A DNA stretch of 64,000 bases from Pelotomaculum isophthalicicum JI (GTDB taxonomy: Bacteria; Bacillota; Desulfotomaculia; Desulfotomaculales; Pelotomaculaceae), in contig NZ_JAKOAV010000005.1 in assembly GCF_029478095.1 (NCBI RefSeq), positions 1 to 64,000 of the forward strand, given 5' to 3'. Under the pieces are notes generated by a model. That model was given only the letters and a program-made list of their open reading frames with translations, ran no database searches and was not told where the DNA came from. Below are positions 1,833 to 15,819 of the stretch, in pieces. A program made the position numbers and the translations under genes. Within the stretch, counting starts at the first letter, position 1. Each line of letters opens with the position of its first letter.

Positions 1833-2720
1833 GTGGTGGCAGAAAAAGGAACCTGGTTGGTTAAAAAAGGTCTGGCCGAGATGTTAAAGGGTGGCGTAAT
1901 CATGGATGTTACCACCCCGGAACAGGCCAAAATAGCGGAGGAAGCGGGTGCCTGCGCAGTGATGGCGCTTGAGCGGGTGCCGGCTGATATACGGGCTGCC
2001 GGGGGAGTGGCCAGGATGGCCGATCCCACCGTCATATTAAAAATAATGGATGCTGTCACGATTCCAGTAATGGCAAAAGCGCGTATCGGTCACTTCGTGG
2101 AAGCCCAGATATTAGAATCTCTTGGTGTGGACTATATTGATGAGAGTGAAGTATTAACACCGGCTGACGAGAACCACCATATAAATAAGCATGCTTTTAA
2201 GGTGCCGTTTGTCTGTGGAGCCAGAAACCTGGGTGAAGCATTGAGGCGGATTGGCGAGGGAGCGGCGATGATCCGTACAAAGGGTGAACCCGGGACCGGA
2301 AACGTGGTGGAAGCTGTACGTCACATGCGAATGGTCATGGGGGAGATCCGCAGGCTGCAGAACATGCCTAAAGAGGAACTGATGGCGGCGGCGAAGGAAA
2401 TGGGTGCGCCTTATGAATTAGTGTTACAGGCAGCCGAAACAGGCACTCTCCCGGTGGTGAATTTCGCGGCGGGCGGAATAGCTACTCCAGCCGATGCCGC
2501 CCTGATGATGCAGTTGGGTTGTGACGGGATATTTGTGGGTTCAGGGATATTTAAGTCGAATGATCCGGCGGCCAGGGCCAAGGCTATTGTGGTTGCAACC
2601 ACACATTACAACGATCCCGGTATACTGGCGGAAGTCTCAAAGAACCTGGGCGAGGCGATGCCGGGTCTTGAGATAGCCACTATTTCCCCTGAGTATAGAA
2701 TGCAAGACCGTGGCTGGTGA
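1833..2720 (+). CDS. pdxS: Pyridoxal 5'-phosphate synthase, PdxS (Pdx1) subunit
   Basis: PdxS condenses ribose 5-phosphate, glyceraldehyde 3-phosphate and ammonia into PLP in the DXP-independent B6 pathway, as a dodecameric core decorated by PdxT. The 295-residue product has full family length. With this start, Asp25 (VIMDV), Lys82 ([10 protein letters not shown]) and Lys150 ([11 protein letters not shown]) match the catalytic Asp24, Lys81 and Lys149 of the Bacillus enzyme with a one-residue offset. The start is GTG. GTG codons at 1833 and 1836 are both possible behind GGGGG at 1824, and the second removes one residue. pdxT follows 56 nt downstream, so ammonia donor and synthase are made together. 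Confidence 0.96.
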
Positions 2721-2776
2721 TTTTCTTATAATATTAATTTAATTAATAAATATCATGGGAGGAAGTTTAGGATATT

Positions 2777-3343
2777 ATGCGAATAGGTGTTCTGGCCTTG
2801 CAGGGAGCTTTCAGGGAACACCAGAAAATCCTTGCGGAATGTGGAGTAGAGTCGACGCAAATCAGAAAGAACACGCAGCTTGATGGTATATCAGCGTTGA
2901 TCATACCTGGCGGCGAGAGCACAACCATAGGAAAGTTGATGAACGAATTCGAGCTTTTTGAGCCCATAATTAAAATGAGCGAAGATGGTTTGCCGGTACT
3001 CGGAACCTGCGCCGGGCTAATTATGTTGGCTAAGGAGATTAACGGTTCACAGCAAGCTCGTCTTAATTTGATGGACATATCCGTGGAGCGCAATGCCTTC
3101 GGGCGGCAGGTAGACAGTTTCGAAACTGATTTGGATATACCTGTTTTGGGGGCGCAACCATACCGGGCGGTTTTTATCCGCGCGCCATATATTACCGGTG
3201 TCGGCGGAAACGTTCAGGTGCTGGCGAAATATGAAGAGAAAATTGTGCTTGCTCGTCAGGGGAGGTTTATGGCGGCGGCTTTTCATCCTGAACTAACCGG
3301 AGATTTACGGCTTCATCGTTATTTTATAGAAAATTGTTTATAA
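2777..3343 (+). CDS. pdxT: Glutaminase subunit of PLP synthase, PdxT (Pdx2)
   Basis: A class I-type glutamine amidotransferase that hydrolyses glutamine and channels ammonia to PdxS. The 188-residue product carries the nucleophile Cys78 in GTCAG, the His170/Glu172 pair in FHPELTGD, and the oxyanion-region motif PGGEST near residue 45, all at usual family positions. An ATG start follows a GGGAGGAAG ribosome-binding site. It forms an operon with pdxS, as is common in Firmicutes. Confidence 0.96.
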   Translation: MRIGVLALQGAFREHQKILAECGVESTQIRKNTQLDGISALIIPGGESTTIGKLMNEFELFEPIIKMSEDGLPVLGTCAGLIMLAKEINGSQQARLNLMDISVERNAFGRQVDSFETDLDIPVLGAQPYRAVFIRAPYITGVGGNVQVLAKYEEKIVLARQGRFMAAAFHPELTGDLRLHRYFIENCL

Positions 3344-3414
3344 TAAAACAACTATTTTTCATATTGTAAGTTGAGGTCGGATATAGTATATTTAATTAAC
3401 AGGTTAATAAAAAC

Positions 3415-3656
3415 CCTGTGAAGGGGTAAAGTAATCAGCTGTATCCTTTTCAGAGAGCCGGTGGTGGCTGTGAACCGGTAAGAGCGGCATGATGAAACAG
3501 GCTCCCTGGAGGAGGTTTGCTGAAAGCAGAAGTAGGCAAACCCGGGTTAGTTCCCGTTATCACAAGCTCGAGTGGGCCGGAGTTATTCCGGCTAATAAGG
3601 GTGGCACCGCGGGAGTAACCTCTCGTCCCTATTTTTTAGGGATGAGGGGTTTTTAA
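3415..3656 (+). promoter_or_regulatory. T-box leader (probably serine-responsive)
   Basis: The Stem I region has the AGAGAG box at 3451 and a GCCGGT/ACCGGT helix. A GGTTTGC/GCAAACC hairpin follows at 3515-3543, then the T-box core AAGGGTGGCACCGCGG at 3597-3612. The intrinsic terminator at 3616-3654 pairs CCTCTCGTCCCT with AGGGATGAGG and ends in a T run. The antiterminator bulge reads TGGC, which pairs with a tRNA ending GCCA. Both tRNA-Ser genes at 8071 and 8198 end GCCA, and the genes controlled make serine. A possible specifier AGC lies at 3483-3485, but I could not fix the specifier loop by eye. Confidence 0.9.
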
Positions 3657-3697
3657 TATTTTAAAGTGTAAATTTAAATGAGAGAGGGGAGACTCAA

Positions 3698-4849
3698 ATG
3701 CAAGACAAAAAATATTTAATGATTCCGGGTCCCACACCTGTACCGCCGACAGTGGTTGCCGCTATGTCGCAACCTCTGATAGGCCACAGGTCAGACGACT
3801 TTGCCAAGTTGCATGAGCAGATTGTAGGTAAATTGAAGAAAGTTTTACAAACGAATAACGACATATTTGTACTTACTAATTCCGGTACCGGCTCACTAGA
3901 GACAGCCATTGCAAATACGGTGAATCCCGGCGATAAAGTATTGGCCTTGATTACCGGGAATTTCGGCGAGCGCTTCGCGAATATCGCCAAAGCATACGGC
4001 GCCAAGGTTGACGAGGTGGATTTTGGCTGGGGCAATGATGTTGATTTAAAGGTCGTTGAGGAAAAACTGGCCGCCGATTCCGGCTATAAAGTTGTACTGG
4101 CGACTCAGAACGAGACTTCTACCGGTGTGAAAAACGATATTGCGGGAATTGCCGCGCTTGTATCTAAAACACCCGCCCTGCTGCTGGTTGATGGTGTCAG
4201 CGGCATTGGCGCTATTGAACATAAGACGGACGAATGGGGTGTCGACATCCTGTGCACGGCCTCTCAGAAAGCGCTTATGTTGCCGCCCGGCCTTTCTGTG
4301 ATCACCGTTAGTGAAAAAGCCTGGCGGGTAGTAAATGACAACCAATCGCCACGGTTTTATTTCAGCCTGCCGGCTGCCAAGAAAGTATATGATAAATGGA
4401 ATACCGCTTACACACCTGGTGTGTCGATGTTTTTGGGGATGGATGCCGCCCTGGACATGATGCTGGCGGAAGGTATGGACAATGTTTACGCGCGCCATGC
4501 TTTGCTGGCCAAGGCTACCCGGGCTGCCGCCAAGGCCTTGGGATTAAAGCTTCTTTCCGAGGACCGTTGCGCGTCTAACGCACTCACAGCCGTTTGGAGC
4601 CCGGAGGGCATCGGCGCTGACGATATTCGCAAAGTACTGAAGAAACAGTATGGGATCACTTTTGCTGGCGGCCAGGGAAAATTGAAAGGAAAGATATTCC
4701 GGATTGCTCATATGGGCTTCTCTGATAAAATGGATATTATGATTGCTATCAGCGCGCTGGAAATGGCACTGGCGCAAGTCGGCTATTCTGTTGAGCTTGG
4801 CACAGGTGTTAAAGCCGCCCAGGAAGTATTTTTGGGAAAGGTGGAATAA
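3698..4849 (+). CDS. Class V aminotransferase (serine/alanine-glyoxylate family), probable serine-pathway transaminase
   Basis: A PLP-dependent fold-type I enzyme of the alanine-glyoxylate / serine-pyruvate aminotransferase group. The N-terminus MIPGPTPVP is typical of the family, and Lys191 in TASQKALMLPPG is the Schiff-base lysine. Length (383 residues) is normal. It sits behind a T-box and only three nucleotides before serA, so it most likely supplies the transamination step of serine synthesis (3-phosphohydroxypyruvate to phosphoserine), replacing a classical SerC. That role is inferred from context; serine-glyoxylate or alanine-glyoxylate transamination is the alternative. The ATG start has a GAGGGGAG ribosome-binding site. 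Confidence 0.88.
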   Translation: MQDKKYLMIPGPTPVPPTVVAAMSQPLIGHRSDDFAKLHEQIVGKLKKVLQTNNDIFVLTNSGTGSLETAIANTVNPGDKVLALITGNFGERFANIAKAYGAKVDEVDFGWGNDVDLKVVEEKLAADSGYKVVLATQNETSTGVKNDIAGIAALVSKTPALLLVDGVSGIGAIEHKTDEWGVDILCTASQKALMLPPGLSVITVSEKAWRVVNDNQSPRFYFSLPAAKKVYDKWNTAYTPGVSMFLGMDAALDMMLAEGMDNVYARHALLAKATRAAAKALGLKLLSEDRCASNALTAVWSPEGIGADDIRKVLKKQYGITFAGGQGKLKGKIFRIAHMGFSDKMDIMIAISALEMALAQVGYSVELGTGVKAAQEVFLGKVE

Positions 4850-4852
4850 ATA

Positions 4853-6436
4853 ATGAAGAAAGTATTGGTAATGGACGGTGTTGCTGAAATTGGTTTGGCG
4901 GCGCTCAGGCGCGAGCCGGATATTGAAGTGGTTATCGGCGAAAAAATGTCCGAGGATGAGTTGTGCAATGTTATCGGTGAGTATGACGCAATGATCGTGC
5001 GGAGTGCCACGAAAGCTACCGCAAGAGTTATTGAACATGCCTCTAAGATGATTATAATAGGGCGCGCGGGTGTCGGTATCGATAATATCGACGTGGCTGC
5101 CGCAACAGCAAAAGGAATATTGGTGGTCAACGCCCCGGACGGCAATACCATTGCCGCAACCGAGCACACCATGGCTATGATGCTGGCGCTCACCCGCAAC
5201 ATCCCGCAGGCCTGGGCAACCCTGCGTGCCGGCAAGTGGGACAAGAAGTCCTTCATGGGTGTTGAGTTCAGGAATAAAGTACTGGGTGTCATCGGGCTGG
5301 GCCGGATCGGGTCGGCTGTGGCGAAGCGCGCTCAGGGCATGGAGATGAAGGTTGTCGCCTACGATCCATATATCAGTGAGGAAAAAGCTGAGAGTCTCGG
5401 AATACAGTTGCTCCCGCTGGAAGAGTTATTTAAACAAGCGGACTTTATTACCAATCACCTGCCTCTAACCAAGGAATCCAAATATATCGTCGGGGAGAAA
5501 GCCTTCAGCCTGATGAAAGACGGGGTACGGTTAGTTAACTGTGCCAGAGGCGGCGTGGTGGATGAGCAAGCGTTATATGCGGCGATGAAGTCGGGCAAAG
5601 TCGCCGGGGCGGCACTGGACGTATTTGAAAAAGAGCCTACCACGGAGAGCCCACTCTTCGAATTAAACAATTTCATTGGTACCCCGCACCTGGGCGCTTC
5701 TACCGAGGAAGCCCAGCTTAACGTGGCCTTTGACGTGGCAGTAGAGATTGTGGCTGCCCTGAAAGGGGACTTCGTTAAGAATGCCGTTAATATTCCATCC
5801 TTGAGTCCGAAAGTTATGGCAGTTGTCAAGCCTTACCTGACACTGGCGGAAAAGCTGGGCAAGTTTGTCGCCCAGTTGGTCGGCGGACGGACTGAAAAGA
5901 TTGAAATCACATACAGCGGGGACTTGGCAAGCCAGGATGTAGCCCCCATTACTACAGCGGTATTAAAAGGTTTCCTGGACACCATCCTGCAGGAGATGGT
6001 CAACTTTGTTAACGCTCCGACCCTGGCCAAAGAGCGCGGCATCAATGTTATCCAGCAGCAGGCCGGTGAAGAGGGCGATTATGCCAATCTGATAACAGTC
6101 AAGGTTATTTCGGACAAAGACGAAATTTCAGTGGCTGGGACTATTTTCGGTGGTACCGACCCGCGGTTCGTGTTTATCGACGGCTACCACGTGGATGCGG
6201 TACCGGAGGGGCATATGCTTTATGTTCCACATACCGACAAGCCGAAGATCATCGGTCCGGTAGCCAACCTGATTGGGGCGCATGACATTAACATATCCGG
6301 TATGCAGGTAGGCCGCAAATCTATTGGCGGCAAAGCGGTAATGCTCTTGAACGTTGATACTCCCGTACCTGAAGAAACCATGGCGGAAATCGCTAAAATC
6401 GATGGGGTGCAGGGTGTGAAAAACGTAAGTTTATAA
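4853..6436 (+). CDS. serA: D-3-phosphoglycerate dehydrogenase
   Basis: Catalyses the first committed step of serine synthesis, NAD-dependent oxidation of 3-phosphoglycerate. The 527-residue product is the long form: catalytic and NAD-binding domains (residues 1-310, Rossmann motif GLGRIGS near 147-153, catalytic Arg232 in NCARGGVVDE, His in GTPHLGAST near 279), an intervening ASB-type domain (about 320-450), and a C-terminal ACT domain (about 455-527) expected to bind serine. The start is three nucleotides after the aminotransferase stop, so the genes are translationally close and share the T-box. A terminator follows at 6472. Confidence 0.96.
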   Translation: MKKVLVMDGVAEIGLAALRREPDIEVVIGEKMSEDELCNVIGEYDAMIVRSATKATARVIEHASKMIIIGRAGVGIDNIDVAAATAKGILVVNAPDGNTIAATEHTMAMMLALTRNIPQAWATLRAGKWDKKSFMGVEFRNKVLGVIGLGRIGSAVAKRAQGMEMKVVAYDPYISEEKAESLGIQLLPLEELFKQADFITNHLPLTKESKYIVGEKAFSLMKDGVRLVNCARGGVVDEQALYAAMKSGKVAGAALDVFEKEPTTESPLFELNNFIGTPHLGASTEEAQLNVAFDVAVEIVAALKGDFVKNAVNIPSLSPKVMAVVKPYLTLAEKLGKFVAQLVGGRTEKIEITYSGDLASQDVAPITTAVLKGFLDTILQEMVNFVNAPTLAKERGINVIQQQAGEEGDYANLITVKVISDKDEISVAGTIFGGTDPRFVFIDGYHVDAVPEGHMLYVPHTDKPKIIGPVANLIGAHDINISGMQVGRKSIGGKAVMLLNVDTPVPEETMAEIAKIDGVQGVKNVSL

Positions 6437-7977: not shown

Positions 7978-8070
7978 TGCCAATTTTCTTAAATTGACAC
8001 ATAATTTTATCTATGGTAAACTTATTAATGTGTTATTATGTGATTAAACCGGCAGTTGGAGGGCCTGAAT

Positions 8071-8160
8071 GGAGGGGTGTCCGAGCGGTTGAAGGAGGCG
8101 GTCTTGAAAACCGTTGGTCCTTTGCGGGTCCCGTGGGTTCGAATCCCACCCCCTCCGCCA
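8071..8160 (+). tRNA. tRNA-Ser (TGA)
   Basis: A 90-nt class II tRNA with acceptor GGAGGGG paired to CCCCTCC, discriminator G and encoded CCA. The anticodon loop CTTGAAA gives anticodon TGA (reads UCA). A long variable arm is present, as expected for serine. It stands 94 nt after serS. Confidence 0.96.
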
Positions 8161-8197
8161 TAATACCGGGAATTGGAAGTATATAAGGTAATGTTGT

Positions 8198-8291
8198 GGA
8201 GAGTTGGCCGAGTTGGCTGAAGGCGCTCGCCTGCTAAGCGAGTAGACGGCGTTAAACTGTCTCGAGGGTTCGAATCCCTCACTCTCCGCCA
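8198..8291 (+). tRNA. tRNA-Ser (GCT)
   Basis: A 94-nt class II tRNA with acceptor GGAGAGT/ACTCTCC, anticodon GCT in CTCGCCTGCTAAGCGAG (reads AGC/AGU), a long variable arm, discriminator G and encoded CCA. It is paired with the TGA isoacceptor upstream and followed by a terminator. Confidence 0.96.
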
Positions 8292-8293
8292 CC

Positions 8294-8333
8294 AAGCCTA
8301 CAAACATGTCTGTTTGTAGGCTTTCGCCTTTTT
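8294..8333 (+). terminator. Terminator after tRNA-Ser genes
   Basis: AAGCCTACAAACA pairs with TGTTTGTAGGCTT across a four-base loop, followed by TTCGCCTTTTTAT. This is a strong Rho-independent terminator and marks the border between conserved synteny and the accessory block. Confidence 0.85.
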
Positions 8334-8609
8334 ATCAGCAAATACCTCTAAGCCAAAAATGACAACAAGATCGCGGTAACATGTTACCATTACCCGCTGA
8401 ATATTTATTCTTGATATTCAGACTTTATTCATACCGTGATGGAAAATTGGTGACAAGACCCTTGAGCATGTGTAAAAGCCTAAATGCAGTGATAGGCGGA
8501 TATGTGAAAAAGCTAAACAAATGAACAGAAACTGCAAAAAATACTTGGAAATCATCACTGCTTGTGATACCATAACTATGTATAACTATGGGTATGAGGA
8601 GGTACTAAC

Positions 8610-11600
8610 ATGCAATCCAGTACGGAAAGTATTAAAAAACTGATTGCAGCACTGGGTTTTGCTCCTCAAAATGGGAAAAATAATGTATATTTTAAATCAT
8701 ATCCTTCGCACGACGGGTACTTCATTTGCATTGACTTTAACGAAGAAAAGATAGAGTATTTTACGCAGGTCACTCCGCGGGGGGCTTGCATAAGATTAGG
8801 TGACGCGACAACAAGCAACTTTTCTAACCCTGAAAATTTTGTGGTGTTGGAATGCGTCGATAGGCTGCTGGAAAAGGGGTACAAACCGTATAACATCGAA
8901 TTAGAAAAGAAATATCCATTAGGCCGGAATCTGAAGGGAAAATTGGATATCCTTGTCTATGATGGCGATGTTCCTTTTCTTATGATTGAATGTAAGACTT
9001 GGGGGCAGGAGTACGAAAGAGAGCATAAAAAGATGCTCAGGGACGGCGGGCAGCTATTTTCTTACTACACGCAAGACAGAGCTACAAAATATCTATGCCT
9101 TTATACTTCCCGCCTCGGGAAGACGGTTGAATATAAAAATAGCATCGTTGTAGTTGAGGATAACTGGCGCGAGTTATCCGGCACGAAAGAAATCTACGAA
9201 TATTGGAACAAAAATTTTAAGGACAACGGTATTTTTGAGAACTACTCCGCGCCTTATGATGTCAAGCATAAGGCGCTTACATATGGGATGCTCAGGACGC
9301 TCAAAGAAGAGGACAGCGGGAAAATCTATAATCAAATTATGGAGATATTGCGCCACAACGCAATATCTGATAAACCCAACGCTTTTAATAAACTCCTAAA
9401 TTTGTTTGTATGCAAAATCATTGATGAGAACAAGAACGCGGACGATGAGCTAGAGTTTCAGTGGTTGGAAACGGATAGCGATGAAAGCCTGCAAATGCGG
9501 CTTAACGATTTATACAAGGAAGGTATGTGGCGTTTTCTTGAGATAGATGTCATTGACCATTCGGAAGATGAGGTATCTCAAGCTTTAGAGGGTATTGACA
9601 ACGAAGCGCAGAAGCAACGGCTGAAGGATATGTTCAGGGACGCTAGGTTGAAGAAAAGCCCAAATTTTGCGTTTGTTGAGGTTTTGGACAACAAGACCTT
9701 TGAATTGAACGCGAAAATAGTTCGTGAAATCGTGGAGCTTTTGCAGGTCTACAAGTTTAGGTATGACCAAAAACACGAATTCTTGGGCAATTTCTTTGAA
9801 CTACTGTTAAACGCCAGCATGAAACAGGAAGCGGGGCAGTTTTTTACCCCGGTTCCGATAACCCGTTTCATTATATCTTCACTCCCATTGAAAGAGTTTG
9901 TTCAAAAAAGAATTGACAATAGGGAACGTGATACGCTCCCTGTTGTGATGGACTACGCTTGCGGTAGCGGACATTTTTTAACCGAATACATGTCGCAGAT
10001 GCAGGATATAATTGATACAAAAATCAATATTTCCAAAGCGTTGCCTAGCGTAAGAAATTATTTTCAATCATGGCAAGGCTTGACTAAGTTTTTATGGGCG
10101 AGAGATTCAGTTTACGGTATTGATTTGGATAACAGGCTCGTAAAAACCACAAAGGTCAGCGCCTTTTTCAACGGCGATGGAGAGGCCACTATTGTGTGGG
10201 CTAACGGGTTGGGCAATTTTGAAAAATCAGATGAATATAGAGGTAAACTGAAGCAAATATCCACCCTCGACAGGAAGAACAACGGACAATTTGATATCCT
10301 TATCTCAAACCCGCCATACTCTGTTGAGGCTTTTAAAAGTATGCTCAAATATGGAAGCGAAACGTTTGAGCTTTTTGACCATATAACTGATAACAGTTCC
10401 GAAATCGAATGCCTCTTTATCGAGCGCATGAAACAGTTGCTGAAAGTTGGAGGTTGGGCGGGTATAATTCTGCCAAGTTCCATACTATCCAACGGCGGCA
10501 TCCATTCGAGAGCGCGTGAAATCATATTCAAGTATTTCAATGTAAAAGCGATAGTAGAATTGGGCTCAGGCACGTTCATGAAAACCGGGACGAATACCGT
10601 TGTTCTTTTCCTTGAGCGCCGTTCCGATAACGATAGTATTGCTATTTCAAGGGCGATAGATACTTTCTTTGCCAATAAGAAGGATGTTACCGTTGCCGGA
10701 ATAGAATATGCTTTTTCAAAATACGTTACGAATGTGTACGATGATTTATATTTCGAGGACTACATATCTTTTCTGAATAGCAATGCCAGTAGCCGGATGG
10801 TGAAGCATGAGCTATTTGCGGATTATGCAAAAGTGTTTGGCGATGATGTTTATGCAAAGGCATTTGAGATAGAGAAAGAAAAAATGCTCTACTTCCTTCT
10901 TACATATTCACAAAACATCGTTTTGGTGAAGACAGGCAAGAAACAGAAAGAAAAAGAATTTTTGGGGTATGAATTTAGTGAACGCCGGGGCCACGAGGGT
11001 ATGAAGCGATTGCCCGGCGGGACGAAGCTATATGATGAATCCGGCGATTTGCTTAACCCACAAAAGGCAAATAGTTATATTTATAATGCGTTCCTTGGTA
11101 AAGAAGTGGATATAGATGAAAGTTTGTCCCAAAATGTGTCTTATGGCCGCATGAGTGGGTTTATTGACTATGGGACGGGCAAGTTTGACAGAGTTGTCAA
11201 TTTAAATAAAAGAATCAAAATAGTTTCTAGCTATCCTATGGTAAAGTTGAGTGAAGTAGCTGAGAAGTTATTTGCTGGGGGAGATTTACCAAAAGGTAGA
11301 TATTCTTTAAATGAAACACCCGAATATAAGATTCCTATTTTTGCTAATTCTGTAGAAAAAGATGGGTTATACGGTTATACTGACATTGCTAAAGTAGACG
11401 AAGAATGTGTAACAATATCGGCTAGAGGAACAATCGGTTTTGTAAAAGCAAGAAAAGCGCCTTTTTATCCTATTGTTAGGTTGCTTGTTTTAGTACCAAA
11501 GAAAGATTTTGCAATTAGCAAATATTTGGAATACATCATCTCCCATATGGGTGTAAATCAATTTGGAGTAAACATTCCTCAACTTACTGTTCCACAAGTA

Positions 11601-12296
11601 TCGGAAATCAAAATCCCGATCCCACCGCTTGAAGTGCAGAAAAAAATTGTTGCGGAAATTGAAGCTATCGAGAATGAAGAAAACGCCACAAAAGAGCAGA
11701 TTGAATCTGGAAAAGACAATATTAACTTAATTATAGATAATTGCTTCAATAGCGGTTTTGCAATGACAAAATTGGGTAGTATTGTGCAGTATTCAGAAGA
11801 GCGAATTGATTACCAAAAGCTATCTGCGAAAAATTATATTGGTGTCGATAATCTGCTGCCTAACATAGGTGGGAAAGTTGATTCTCAATATCTCCCCACA
11901 ACAGGGAGTGTGACAGCTTATAAACAAAGTGACATATTATTGTCTAATATACGTCCATATTTGAAGAAAATTTGGTTTGCAAATAATGATGGTGGCAGTT
12001 CAAACGATGTACTCGTATTAACTGTGGTTTCCAAAGATATCATACCAAAGTATGTATATTACAACTTAGCAACTAATGATTTCTTTGATTACGAAATGCA
12101 GAATATCAAAGGAGTTAAAATGCCTCGCGCCAAAAAGGATACCATCTTGAATTATCAAATCCCACTTCCTCTGCTTGAAAAGCAAAAAGAAATCGTATCG
12201 GAGATAGAGAAACACGAAGCGGAAATCGGGACACTAAAAGGCAGACTGGGTGAACTGAAATCCATAAAAGACGGTGTGCTAAAAAAGTATTTGTAG
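8610..12296 (+). CDS. Single-chain restriction-modification enzyme (nuclease + N6-adenine methylase + two-TRD specificity module), type IIG/IIB-like
   Basis: This 1228-residue protein joins all three functions. Residues 90-160 carry a PD-(D/E)XK nuclease core like the HsdR N-terminus: Asp113 in KLDIL, Glu127-x-Lys129 in IECK, and a Q148xxxY152 motif. Residues about 370-760 form an HsdM-type gamma-class N6-adenine methylase with GQFFTP near 408, SAM motif ACGSGHF near 449, and catalytic NPPY near 567. From about residue 870 there is an HsdS-like module with two target-recognition domains separated by a coiled coil (EVQKKIVAEIEAIENEE), ending in a second coiled coil. No DEAD helicase motor is visible, so it is not a classical type I enzyme. 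The layout fits single-chain type IIB/IIG enzymes such as AloI or CjeI, expected to recognise a bipartite site. No partner gene is needed or visible. Base use is more AT-rich than neighbouring housekeeping genes, suggesting acquisition. Confidence 0.9.
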   Translation: MQSSTESIKKLIAALGFAPQNGKNNVYFKSYPSHDGYFICIDFNEEKIEYFTQVTPRGACIRLGDATTSNFSNPENFVVLECVDRLLEKGYKPYNIELEKKYPLGRNLKGKLDILVYDGDVPFLMIECKTWGQEYEREHKKMLRDGGQLFSYYTQDRATKYLCLYTSRLGKTVEYKNSIVVVEDNWRELSGTKEIYEYWNKNFKDNGIFENYSAPYDVKHKALTYGMLRTLKEEDSGKIYNQIMEILRHNAISDKPNAFNKLLNLFVCKIIDENKNADDELEFQWLETDSDESLQMRLNDLYKEGMWRFLEIDVIDHSEDEVSQALEGIDNEAQKQRLKDMFRDARLKKSPNFAFVEVLDNKTFELNAKIVREIVELLQVYKFRYDQKHEFLGNFFELLLNASMKQEAGQFFTPVPITRFIISSLPLKEFVQKRIDNRERDTLPVVMDYACGSGHFLTEYMSQMQDIIDTKINISKALPSVRNYFQSWQGLTKFLWARDSVYGIDLDNRLVKTTKVSAFFNGDGEATIVWANGLGNFEKSDEYRGKLKQISTLDRKNNGQFDILISNPPYSVEAFKSMLKYGSETFELFDHITDNSSEIECLFIERMKQLLKVGGWAGIILPSSILSNGGIHSRAREIIFKYFNVKAIVELGSGTFMKTGTNTVVLFLERRSDNDSIAISRAIDTFFANKKDVTVAGIEYAFSKYVTNVYDDLYFEDYISFLNSNASSRMVKHELFADYAKVFGDDVYAKAFEIEKEKMLYFLLTYSQNIVLVKTGKKQKEKEFLGYEFSERRGHEGMKRLPGGTKLYDESGDLLNPQKANSYIYNAFLGKEVDIDESLSQNVSYGRMSGFIDYGTGKFDRVVNLNKRIKIVSSYPMVKLSEVAEKLFAGGDLPKGRYSLNETPEYKIPIFANSVEKDGLYGYTDIAKVDEECVTISARGTIGFVKARKAPFYPIVRLLVLVPKKDFAISKYLEYIISHMGVNQFGVNIPQLTVPQVSEIKIPIPPLEVQKKIVAEIEAIENEENATKEQIESGKDNINLIIDNCFNSGFAMTKLGSIVQYSEERIDYQKLSAKNYIGVDNLLPNIGGKVDSQYLPTTGSVTAYKQSDILLSNIRPYLKKIWFANNDGGSSNDVLVLTVVSKDIIPKYVYYNLATNDFFDYEMQNIKGVKMPRAKKDTILNYQIPLPLLEKQKEIVSEIEKHEAEIGTLKGRLGELKSIKDGVLKKYL

Positions 12297-12449
12297 TTTT
12301 ATGTGATGCCAACATAATCACCATAATTAATAAAGCTACGACCAACTATAATTGGAAATAATGATTTCAAAAATACAAATGATGGGCATAATGCGAAGAG
12401 GAACACTGGCATCTATATTCACCTAACTTTCCATAATTTATAAGTCTAG

Positions 12450-14132
12450 GAGAGTGTTGCAAAACTCCCATAAAAGGCACACTAACCCCATAAAAATCTA
12501 GCAAGAGACCAATTAAAAAGCAGGGAATCCCCAGTATGCCGGCGAATATTAAAGATATAAGAAGCTACAAGGTGGTGATCTAAAATGCTGGGGCATAAAA
12601 ACAACCAACTCAAATTCACAGATATAGATATACTACAAGCATGGGAGCAAAAACCCATAGTCCCTGAAGACAGCGTTTACTATGGTCTGTCCCAAGCAAA
12701 CGAGATATTTAAAGACGAACTGTTTGCCGATGCATATTCCTTCTCCGGGCGGCCATCCATACCACCGAGCCGTTTAATTAAAGTGCTTTTACTGCAATTT
12801 TACGATAAAGTTTCCGACCGAGAAGCAGAAAACCGAGCCCGCTACGACTTGCGCTGGAAGGTAGCTTTGGGTATTTACATTGCAGAATCCGGTTTTAACT
12901 ACAGTGCGTTATCCAGATTCCGGGCAAGATTGTTATTACACAAGAAAGAACATATTGCTTTTGAAGAGATCTTGGATGCGGTAATAGCCAAAGGGCTACT
13001 CCCCGGCAATTGCGCCAGACAAATAATGGATTCAACCTACGTACTCGGAGCCGGTGCTGTACAGGACACCTATACCTTAATCCGGATGGCTATCAGAAAA
13101 CTTCAAACAACAAGCGGTTAAACCTGAGCACACTGCTGCCAAAGCCTTTAAATCTTGATTATCAGAGCAAAAACAAACCAAAAATCAACTGGGAAGATCC
13201 CGCCGGGCGCAATAAATTACTTAATGAATTGTGCCAAGATGCCTTGCAGATTGTTGAGACAGTTGACAAACTAAAACTTACCAAATAAGAACAGGAATTA
13301 AGAGATATTTTAGCTGCGGTAGCCATCCAGGATATAGAACAACAAAAGGACGATACAGTCAAACTAAAACAAGGAGTGGTCAAAGACCGGATTATTTCCA
13401 CCAACGACCCGGAGATGCGGCACGGCCGCAAATCCAGTGCCCGCAAATTTGATGGTTACAAAACCCATACTGCCATGGAAACAGATAATAACTTTATTAC
13501 CGAAATCGAAGTCACACCAGGTAACGTTCATGACTGTGAAGCAGCCGCTCCGTTAGTGGACCAGCAACCCGAAGAGCGAAAACCGGATACAGTCTTGTGT
13601 GACATGGCCTATGGCACAGGTCAAAACAGAGAAGATATGGAAAAGCGCCAGGTTAAAATAATTTGTCCCGTACCCACAGACTCCGGACGAAACGGCTGTT
13701 TTCCCAAGTCAGCATTTAAAATAGATTTAGATGCCCAAACCTGCCAGTGTCCTGCCGGTAAAATAGTGACTGAGAAAATATATGATAAGAAAACAAATCG
13801 CTTGAAAGTGTTTGTATTTTCACAGGAACAATGTCAAAACTGCCCTCTGCTAAATCAGTGTACCAAAAGCAAAAAAGGCAGACGTACCATCACAGTAAAC
13901 CAATATGAACGACACTTGCAGGAAGCGCGTATCTTTCAGCAAACCGAAGAATTCAAAATTTAGCTATATAGGGTTAGACTGTTTGAAAGAAGGAATAGAT
14001 GGATAAATGCCTCAAAAATAAAGCTAATTGTAAGGCTTAACCAAGATTATTACCATTTTATATATGTCTTGATTTTTAAAATTTATAAAGTTGCTGTGGC
14101 CTTCAAAAAAACAGGGTTTATGCAACACTCTC
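12450..14132 (+). mobile_element. Decayed IS1182-family-like insertion sequence
   Basis: Terminal inverted repeats GAGAGTGTTGCA (left, from 12450) and TGCAACACTCTC (right, to 14132) are perfect over 12 bp and flanked on both sides by CTAG (12446-12449 and 14133-14136). CTAG fits a 4-bp target duplication or palindromic target. The element carries one broken transposase gene. Its right end lies inside the end of the convergent stalk-domain gene. Confidence 0.85.
12585..13963 (+). pseudogene. IS1182-type transposase, frameshifted and truncated
   Basis: The N-terminal part (12585-13121) has the family opening with the helix-turn-helix-like segment SGRPSIPPSRLIKVLLLQFY and MDSTYVLGAGAVQD. Homology then jumps frame twice: near 13105 into QAVKPEHTAAKAFKS, then near 13155 into LDYQSKNKPKINW. 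An in-frame TAA at 13286 interrupts the next part. Reading resumes through DPEMRHGRKSS and a Cys-rich segment to 13963. The conserved C-terminal catalytic portion is mostly missing, with only a short tail-like stretch (KLIVRLNQD) left near 14020. The gene cannot make active transposase, so the copy is immobile unless helped in trans. Confidence 0.88.
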
Positions 14133-15819
14133 CTAGGGAAGCAGGACCCTGTGAGAAAACGGGTCCTGCTTGTTTTATTGAATCTTTAGCCCGGCTGATG
14201 AAAATCGTTTTTGAGGCACTGTCGTATCTAACCTGGAAGCCGAGTTCCTCGGCAATTGTCCTTAAAGGGACCATTGTTATCGTTTTATCCCTGGTAAACG
14301 GGGGTACGTCAAATTGTTTTTCAACGCCGTTGACGGTGTACGTTTGTTGGCCAATATACATGGTGATAGAGGTGTCTTCGCGGCAAATATTTATCTGATC
14401 CGGATCAACCCAAGTAACTTCGCATCCCAGTGCTTTCGACAGGTTTCTTACCGGCACCATCGTCCTGCCTTCCACGTCGCACGGGGGGACGTCAAAAGCA
14501 ACCGGCCTGCCTTCGACCAGCACGTGGATTCTCGTTGAATTATTGGGTTTTTTAAATGAGTTGTTATTTACCAAAGACTCAATATCTGAGCTGTTTAATT
14601 TGGTTAGCACGGGAATATTTGTCTGGACATTCTTGTCTACTTTGTCCTCGGAACCGCATTCTAAATTCAAATCTATTAAAGTAGCGTTCTTACTCACGTC
14701 TTTTACGTTTAACTTGAATGAACCATTGCTCTTGGCATTATTGCTGGTTTGCCGCAGTTGCCCTTCAATTTGCCCGGTAATATCCATCGCTTCCTCCTTA
14801 TCCTGCACGGACAAAATTATACTGTATGTTCCATTCAAGTTTTCGTTGCCGCCGGTAAAATCGGTGTTCACCGTAAGCTTGGCGGTTGATTCCGGAGTGT
14901 CGATGAAGTTCGCCACCGCGACTAGCTTACGCTGTCCCGCCGGCAATAAGGAAACCTCGTATTTTAGTTCTTCTAAATCAATAATTCTTGCCAGATTCTC
15001 CTGTATTTTTTCGGGTTTTTCCGGATATTCGCCTTTACTGACGCTGTGTTCAATTCCGGCTATTATTTCACTCTTAATGTTTTCCTTGTTTACACCGGGT
15101 TCAATAGCGGAGTCTATGTCGGCTAATATGGAAGCGAATCTTTCCTTTTCATTTACGGTTTTTTGCATAAGCGAGTATATAATATCGCATAGGCCTTGCT
15201 GGTCTATACTAAAGGTAACTTTCTGGTTGACTAACGAGGCAGAAAAATACTTATCCGGAATAGCTTCAATCACGAAAACCAGTAAATCCTTGAACCCCGG
15301 CGGTAGGTATTGCCCTTCGTGGTAAGTATATGAGTTCCAAATATCACCTATTTCGCTTCCGGTATAATAAACGTATTTTGGGATACTTATCAGTCTATCG
15401 GTTTTAAAATCCGGGTCGATATCTTTAAGTAATAACAGGGCTTCAGTTGACAGGATTAGCTTGTTGTTATCAATAAACAGGCTGCCGGAATAGTTGTTAT
15501 GATTGTAAGATAAATTATAGTCTATCTCCATCTTTTTTTCGGGGGAATTGAGTTTGGTATCAAATTTCAGCTGAGAGCCGTTTAAATATTTTAACGTTTC
15601 TTCAGTCGAAATAAGTGAACCGCCGAGTGTTTTTAAAAACAGGGTTGCAGTTCCTGAAGATTTTTCAAAGAGCCCGTCCGGCGGGCTGAAAGTTGATTTT
15701 TGAATGCCGTTAAGTAACAGTTGTTTTGCCGTTAGCGCTGATTCCGCCTGGACGGGATTGATAATGCCAAGACAAAAAATAAAACAGAACAACATTAATA
15801 AAGCAAGTTTATTTTTCAT
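14083..15819 (-). CDS. Secreted protein with C-terminal copper amine oxidase-like stalk domains; 3' end altered by IS
   Basis: A 578-residue protein with an N-terminal signal peptide (basic MKNK, hydrophobic core to about residue 24, VQA-E cleavage-like site). A middle region of about 400 residues of mixed beta-type sequence is not one I can assign. Residues about 440-560 contain paired stalk-domain motifs (GRTMVPVRNLSKALGCEVTW and ITMVPLRTIAEELGF), like those found in many clostridial cell-surface proteins. The C-terminal residues after GPASL are encoded by the right end of the IS element. Rejoining the flanks at CTAG gives an ancestral end of ...GPASLDL followed by TAA. The present tail (GECCINPVFLKATATL) is an insertion product. 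Location should be outside the membrane; the function is unknown. Confidence 0.8.
   Translation of the reverse strand: MKNKLALLMLFCFIFCLGIINPVQAESALTAKQLLLNGIQKSTFSPPDGLFEKSSGTATLFLKTLGGSLISTEETLKYLNGSQLKFDTKLNSPEKKMEIDYNLSYNHNNYSGSLFIDNNKLILSTEALLLLKDIDPDFKTDRLISIPKYVYYTGSEIGDIWNSYTYHEGQYLPPGFKDLLVFVIEAIPDKYFSASLVNQKVTFSIDQQGLCDIIYSLMQKTVNEKERFASILADIDSAIEPGVNKENIKSEIIAGIEHSVSKGEYPEKPEKIQENLARIIDLEELKYEVSLLPAGQRKLVAVANFIDTPESTAKLTVNTDFTGGNENLNGTYSIILSVQDKEEAMDITGQIEGQLRQTSNNAKSNGSFKLNVKDVSKNATLIDLNLECGSEDKVDKNVQTNIPVLTKLNSSDIESLVNNNSFKKPNNSTRIHVLVEGRPVAFDVPPCDVEGRTMVPVRNLSKALGCEVTWVDPDQINICREDTSITMYIGQQTYTVNGVEKQFDVPPFTRDKTITMVPLRTIAEELGFQVRYDSASKTIFISRAKDSIKQAGPVFSQGPASLGECCINPVFLKATATL
14138..14176 (+). 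terminator. Hairpin between IS and stalk-domain gene
   Basis: AAGCAGGACCC and GGGTCCTGCTT form an 11-bp stem followed on the plus strand by TGTTTTATT. It works as a plus-strand terminator. On the minus strand it lies inside the present coding end of the stalk-domain gene. Confidence 0.6.

What the first reader, a model, noticed from the sequence alone, without database searches (positions are those of the whole stretch)
8610..12296. Single-polypeptide nuclease-methylase-specificity enzyme (type IIG/IIB candidate)
One 1228-residue protein combines a PD-(D/E)XK nuclease with QxxxY, an HsdM-like methylase (NPPY) and a two-TRD HsdS module, without a helicase. Known single-chain type IIB enzymes (AloI, CjeI) cut on both sides of a bipartite site. 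The two dissimilar TRDs here imply an asymmetric split recognition sequence. It sits alone behind tRNA-Ser genes and next to an IS, pointing to acquisition.
Basis: partly seen in the sequence, partly recalled or inferred. Interest (0 to 1): 0.6.

Follow-up and report, generated by a model that had tools for sequence, protein, structure and literature searches.

The report
Single-chain type IIB restriction-modification enzyme
This gene encodes an ordinary all-in-one bacterial DNA-defence enzyme, which marks its own DNA and probably cuts unmarked DNA on both sides of a split target site; it was recently acquired beside a tRNA gene, and its relatives swap DNA-reading domains freely.

Summary
ORF 8610-12296 (+, 1228 aa, intact) encodes, in order, an N-terminal PD-(D/E)XK nuclease, a helical connector, a gamma-class adenine methylase (NPPY) and a TRD1-CR1-TRD2-CR2 specificity module. 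No Walker A motif or helicase domain was found. The four nuclease residues shown essential in type IIB BsaXI (E73, D90, E105, K107) correspond to E99, D113, E127, K129 here. The best solved relative is RM.BsaXI, and the best family model is PADLOC type IIG (E 7e-234). Cutting on both sides was not testable. The two TRDs are unrelated, so an asymmetric bipartite m6A site is likely. The gene is foreign: 39% GC (specificity part 35%), present in the species' two genomes but in none of the other related genomes searched. It lies between tRNA-Ser and an IS1182-like element at a spot holding other cargo, or almost nothing, in relatives. Across 16 relatives at 52-74% identity the nuclease-methylase half is conserved while TRDs are reassorted, one TRD family occurring in both slots. 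That is domain movement, already described for type I and two-subunit IIG enzymes. New member of a known kind.

The parts
8610..12296 (+). Single-chain restriction-modification-specificity (RMS) gene, 1228 aa
8610..9176 (+). N-terminal PD-(D/E)XK nuclease domain, about residues 1-189; E99, D113, E127, K129, Q148, Y152
   Evidence: alignment to BsaXI; essential BsaXI residues from PMC11997821; invariance; fold
9177..9770 (+). Helical connector, about residues 190-387
   Evidence: secondary structure (low confidence); BsaXI connector 193-348
9771..10631 (+). Gamma-class N6-adenine methylase, residues about 388-674; motif I DYACGSG 448-454, NPPY 567-570
10632..10919 (+). Multi-helical segment, about residues 675-770, at the place of the BsaXI 'knob' (inferred)
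   Evidence: local pLDDT about 59-86; position after the methylase core as in BsaXI
11205..11640 (+). TRD1 of the HsdS-like module (residues about 866-1010)
11634..11753 (+). CR1 long helix (residues about 1009-1048)
   Evidence: helix 149-189 of the S model; conserved IPxPPLxxQ motif at 1002
11748..12185 (+). TRD2 (residues about 1047-1192), unrelated in sequence to TRD1
12180..12293 (+). CR2 long helix (residues about 1191-1228)
   Evidence: helix 331-369 of the S model
8198..8291 (+). tRNA-Ser(GCT); homology to the same locus in related genomes ends at its last base
12446..14136 (+). IS1182-like element with a broken transposase (12585-13121 and 13376-13963), bounding the acquired stretch on the right

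Best explanation
A self-sufficient single-chain type IIB (type IIG sensu lato) restriction-modification enzyme. Its two different TRDs, held apart by two coiled helices, read the two halves of an asymmetric split DNA site. The gamma-class methylase domain puts N6-methyladenine in each half-site of the host DNA. [quoted passage not shown] Shown here: domain order, active-site residues, two dissimilar TRDs, no translocase, no partner gene, horizontal acquisition. Inferred: activity, double-sided cutting, oligomeric state, target sequence.
For: PADLOC REase_MTase_IIG E 6.8e-234. Best PDB relative RM.BsaXI E 4.4e-42, also top by fold for the RM part, E 8e-15. BsaXI-essential residues conserved. 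S part modelled as TRD1-CR1-TRD2-CR2 and matching HsdS structures, E 4e-15. Nuclease and methylase active sites invariant across relatives whose RM halves are 61-89% identical in pairs, so both are under selection. No conserved partner gene in the relatives. AloI/CjeI-type enzymes are about 1250 aa with two C-terminal TRDs (PMC3874165).
Against: Nothing contradicts it. The RM fold model is poor (mean pLDDT 54) because the alignment is shallow. No REBASE sequence of AloI, CjeI or TstI could be compared. The HSDR_N_2 Pfam match is below its cut-off.
Confidence: 0.88

Rival explanations
1. A single-chain IIG enzyme with a bipartite site that cuts on one side only, because one nuclease domain serves two TRDs.
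For: The 1 RM: 2 TRD stoichiometry is an acknowledged puzzle (PMC3874165), and TstI makes its first break long before the second (PMC4027205).
Against: The characterised single-chain enzymes with two TRDs cited here (AloI, CjeI, TstI) cut on both sides.
Confidence: 0.07
2. An epigenetic methylase whose nuclease domain is inactive in vivo.
For: Maintenance methylation alone could give a host advantage; expression was not tested.
Against: All four nuclease residues essential in BsaXI, plus QxxxY, are conserved here and almost throughout the family.
Confidence: 0.04
3. The specificity-methylase part of a type I or MADS-like multi-gene system.
For: The best NCBIfam match is MAD2 (137.8 bits).
Against: The MAD2 score is far below the curated cut-off of 720. 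There are no other subunits next to the gene or in relatives, and the protein has its own nuclease.
Confidence: 0.01

Closest known systems
AloI / CjeI / PpiI / TstI (single-chain type IIB RMS enzymes)
   Same: One chain of about 1250 aa in the order nuclease, methylase, TRD1-CR1-TRD2-CR2; asymmetric bipartite sites (PMC3874165, PMC4027205, PMC11997821)
   Different: Sequences could not be compared here; the target site of this protein is unknown
BsaXI (type IIB, RM + separate S)
   Same: Homologous nuclease-connector-methylase, the same essential nuclease residues, HsdS-like S
   Different: S is a separate subunit in BsaXI; BsaXI also has a long two-helix paddle, which other characterised type IIB enzymes lack
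Type I HsdS specificity subunits
   Same: S module fold and IPxPPLxxQ repeats
   Different: Fused to nuclease and methylase; no HsdR translocase
H. pylori type IIG S gene with domain movement (Furuta et al. 2011, PMC3077401)
   Same: TRD families shared between slot 1 and slot 2
   Different: There the S gene is separate and alleles of one species are compared; here the enzymes are single-chain and span genera

Membership tests
Single-chain type IIB (AloI/CjeI/TstI type) | One chain of about 1250 aa in order R-M-S | tested here: met
   1228 aa
Single-chain type IIB (AloI/CjeI/TstI type) | N-terminal PD-(D/E)XK nuclease with intact catalytic residues | tested here: met
   E99, D113, E127, K129 aligned to BsaXI E73, D90, E105, K107; D113, E127, K129 invariant, E99 nearly so
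Single-chain type IIB (AloI/CjeI/TstI type) | Gamma-class methylase with NPPF/Y/W | tested here: met
   NPPY 567-570; Pfam N6_Mtase 1.3e-25
Single-chain type IIB (AloI/CjeI/TstI type) | TRD1-CR1-TRD2-CR2 at the C terminus, two different TRDs | tested here: met
   TRD1 and TRD2 fall in different families, BLASTP similarity lying at the ends of the halves toward the CRs
Single-chain type IIB (AloI/CjeI/TstI type) | Helical knob after the methylase core | tested here: inconclusive
   Helical segment 675-770 at the right place (local pLDDT about 59-86) but no superposition of that domain alone
Single-chain type IIB (AloI/CjeI/TstI type) | No ATP-dependent translocase | tested here: met
   No helicase family match, no Walker A
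[quoted passage not shown]
   Needs biochemistry
Single-chain type IIB (AloI/CjeI/TstI type) | Methylates adenine in each half-site without an accompanying methylase | not testable with these tools
   No partner methylase in the neighbourhoods; needs a methylome
Single-chain type IIB (AloI/CjeI/TstI type) | Direct sequence similarity to AloI, CjeI or TstI | not tested
   REBASE is not available; the PADLOC IIG model is a proxy
Type ISP (LlaGI type) | RecA-like translocase in the same chain | tested here: not met
MADS (MAD2) | Score above the curated cut-off of 720 bits | tested here: not met
   137.8 bits

The most novel reading that the evidence does not exclude
The family is a natural single-chain type IIB lineage in which TRDs move freely between the two slots and between genera, and in which the chain can be opened into RM + S (L019). 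Matched natural pairs such as the window enzyme and L019, which carry the same two TRD families fused and split, could show how one nuclease-methylase unit serves two recognition domains.
Probability: 0.25. Interest if true: 0.45.

Novelty: new member of a known kind. Interest (0 to 1): 0.25.

Why it matters
Few type IIB enzymes are sequenced (16 of the 28 listed in REBASE, PMC11997821). A coherent family with a conserved catalytic half and interchangeable TRDs is a source of new bipartite specificities, and it bears on the open question of how single-chain enzymes act with one catalytic unit for two TRDs. For the host it is an ordinary defence gene.

Tried and rejected
tRNA-directed integration: no integrase and no second copy of the tRNA-Ser end near 8000-14200, so an integrating island is not shown. 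Viral carriage: no relative in viral contigs, and only partial matches in phage records. Partner gene: none shared by the relatives. General tRNA association of the family: no tRNA in 12 relatives' loci. Phase variation of the window gene: the only homopolymer of note is one G6 at 8779. Whole RM fold: the model is too poor for domain superposition. Target-site prediction: no reference TRDs of known specificity were available.

Full report
Observation. The ORF at 8610-12296 is real and intact. The whole stretch from serS through the gene recurs in a second MAG of the species with 2 mismatches in 5607 bp. Pfam, NCBIfam and PADLOC agree on a nuclease-like N terminus, an N6-adenine methylase and two specificity repeats. 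The best PADLOC model is type IIG (E 6.8e-234), and the best solved relative is RM.BsaXI (E 4.4e-42).

Active sites. In BsaXI, alanine substitution of E73, D90, E105 or K107 abolishes cleavage (PMC11997821). By the HMMER alignment these correspond to E99, D113, E127 and K129. D113, E127 and K129 are invariant in the family and E99 nearly so. QxxxY is Q148/Y152, methylase motif I is DYACGSG (448-454) and motif IV is NPPY (567-570). No Walker A motif and no helicase family were found.

Specificity module. An AlphaFold model of residues 859-1228 (mean pLDDT 73.6) shows two globular domains and two long helices (149-189 and 331-369 in model numbering) and matches HsdS structures (1yf2, E 4.4e-15) as well as S.BsaXI. 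The two TRDs fall into different sequence families; their only BLASTP similarity lies at the ends of the halves toward the conserved repeats. An asymmetric bipartite site is therefore expected. The RM model (mean pLDDT 53.8, shallow alignment) is usable only locally, but its top matches by Foldseek and VIA-align are BsaXI chains. A helical segment at 675-770 sits where BsaXI and all characterised single-chain type IIB enzymes carry the 'knob' (PMC11997821); this is suggestive, not shown.

Family. One scan of 84,980 species genomes gave 17 loci: one is the same species, and 16 are relatives at 52-74% identity in best segments, mostly Lachnospiraceae and other Clostridia, with one Synergistaceae and one Treponema. 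The scan used only six short peptide patterns, so this is a lower bound. RM halves are 61-89% identical in pairs (12 sequences). The specificity halves form 11 TRD groups among 27 TRDs. One group occurs in slot 2 of L006, L007, L014, L016 and L017 and in slot 1 of L009 and L012, at 65-75% identity between slots. TRD2 of the window belongs to a group shared with L004, L005, L012 and L019, and TRD1 is shared only with L019. Such movement was described by Furuta et al. for type I and for a two-subunit IIG enzyme (PMC3077401). Here it is seen across single-chain enzymes of different genera.

Fission. L019 encodes the same two TRD groups as the window, but as RM (900 aa) plus S (354 aa), the stop TGA overlapping a GTG start. 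It lies inside a well-supported clade with fused L006 and L009 (100/97), so it derives from a fused form. By eye, the junction looks like a single frameshift; a MAG sequencing error is not excluded. EcoKI has a comparable hsdM/hsdS frameshift (PMC3510504, abstract).

Acquisition. The gene is 39% GC (methylase half 41%, specificity half 35%, GC3 30%) against 47% for the window. It is absent from 149 other genomes of genus, family and beyond, and present only in the species' two genomes. In the congener G001 the alignment stops at the last base of tRNA-Ser(GCT) (8291) and resumes at 14138, with 3.1 kb of other genes between; G002 and G003 have only about 220-245 bp there; G005 has a different R-M-like pair beside the same tRNA. 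The stretch 8292-14137 is therefore the variable part. Its right end is an IS1182-like element, 12446-14136, that replaced the last codons of the neighbouring minus-strand gene. No integrase or att duplication was found, so the route of entry is unknown.

Mechanism. By analogy with TstI (homotetramer, bridges two sites, first break long before the second; PMC4027205) and BsaXI, the enzyme should recognise a split site with its two TRDs, methylate an adenine in each half and cut unmodified DNA on both sides. Activity, cut geometry and target are inferred.

Verdict. This is a new member of a known kind, with modest extra interest from TRD reassortment and the split relative.

Noticed in passing
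window 12446-14136: IS1182-like element with 19-bp inverted repeats and a transposase broken into two ORFs. It replaced the C-terminal codons of the minus-strand gene 14083-15819: 17 residues come from the IS, where the congener's protein ends in TDL. An 81% identical copy is on C45.
   Followed up: yes
L055:3864-3872 and L056:2364-2371: Distant homologue on Lactobacillus gasseri plasmids has a poly-G tract of 9 (split ORF) or 8 (one 1248-aa ORF) between nuclease and methylase regions, which looks like a phase-variable type IIG switch.
   Followed up: partly
L019:7929-11689: Natural split of the enzyme into RM and S genes with a GTGA overlap, nested among fused relatives and carrying the same TRD groups as the window.
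   Followed up: partly
L015:659-4744 (and probably L014:440-4364): A helical segment matching window residues about 690-770 is duplicated in L015 (32% identity between copies). L014 seems similar but has Ns in the contig.
   Followed up: partly
L036 (G005), about 2099-5979: A different R-M-like pair (1075-aa MmeI/Eco57I-type methylase plus a 219-aa protein) lies beside the same tRNA-Ser, so the spot may be a defence hot spot in this family.
   Followed up: partly
G000 C5:81225-82848, C2:184293-187115, C19:28075-30325: Three further adjacent methylase and specificity gene pairs (type I-like) in the same genome.
   Followed up: no
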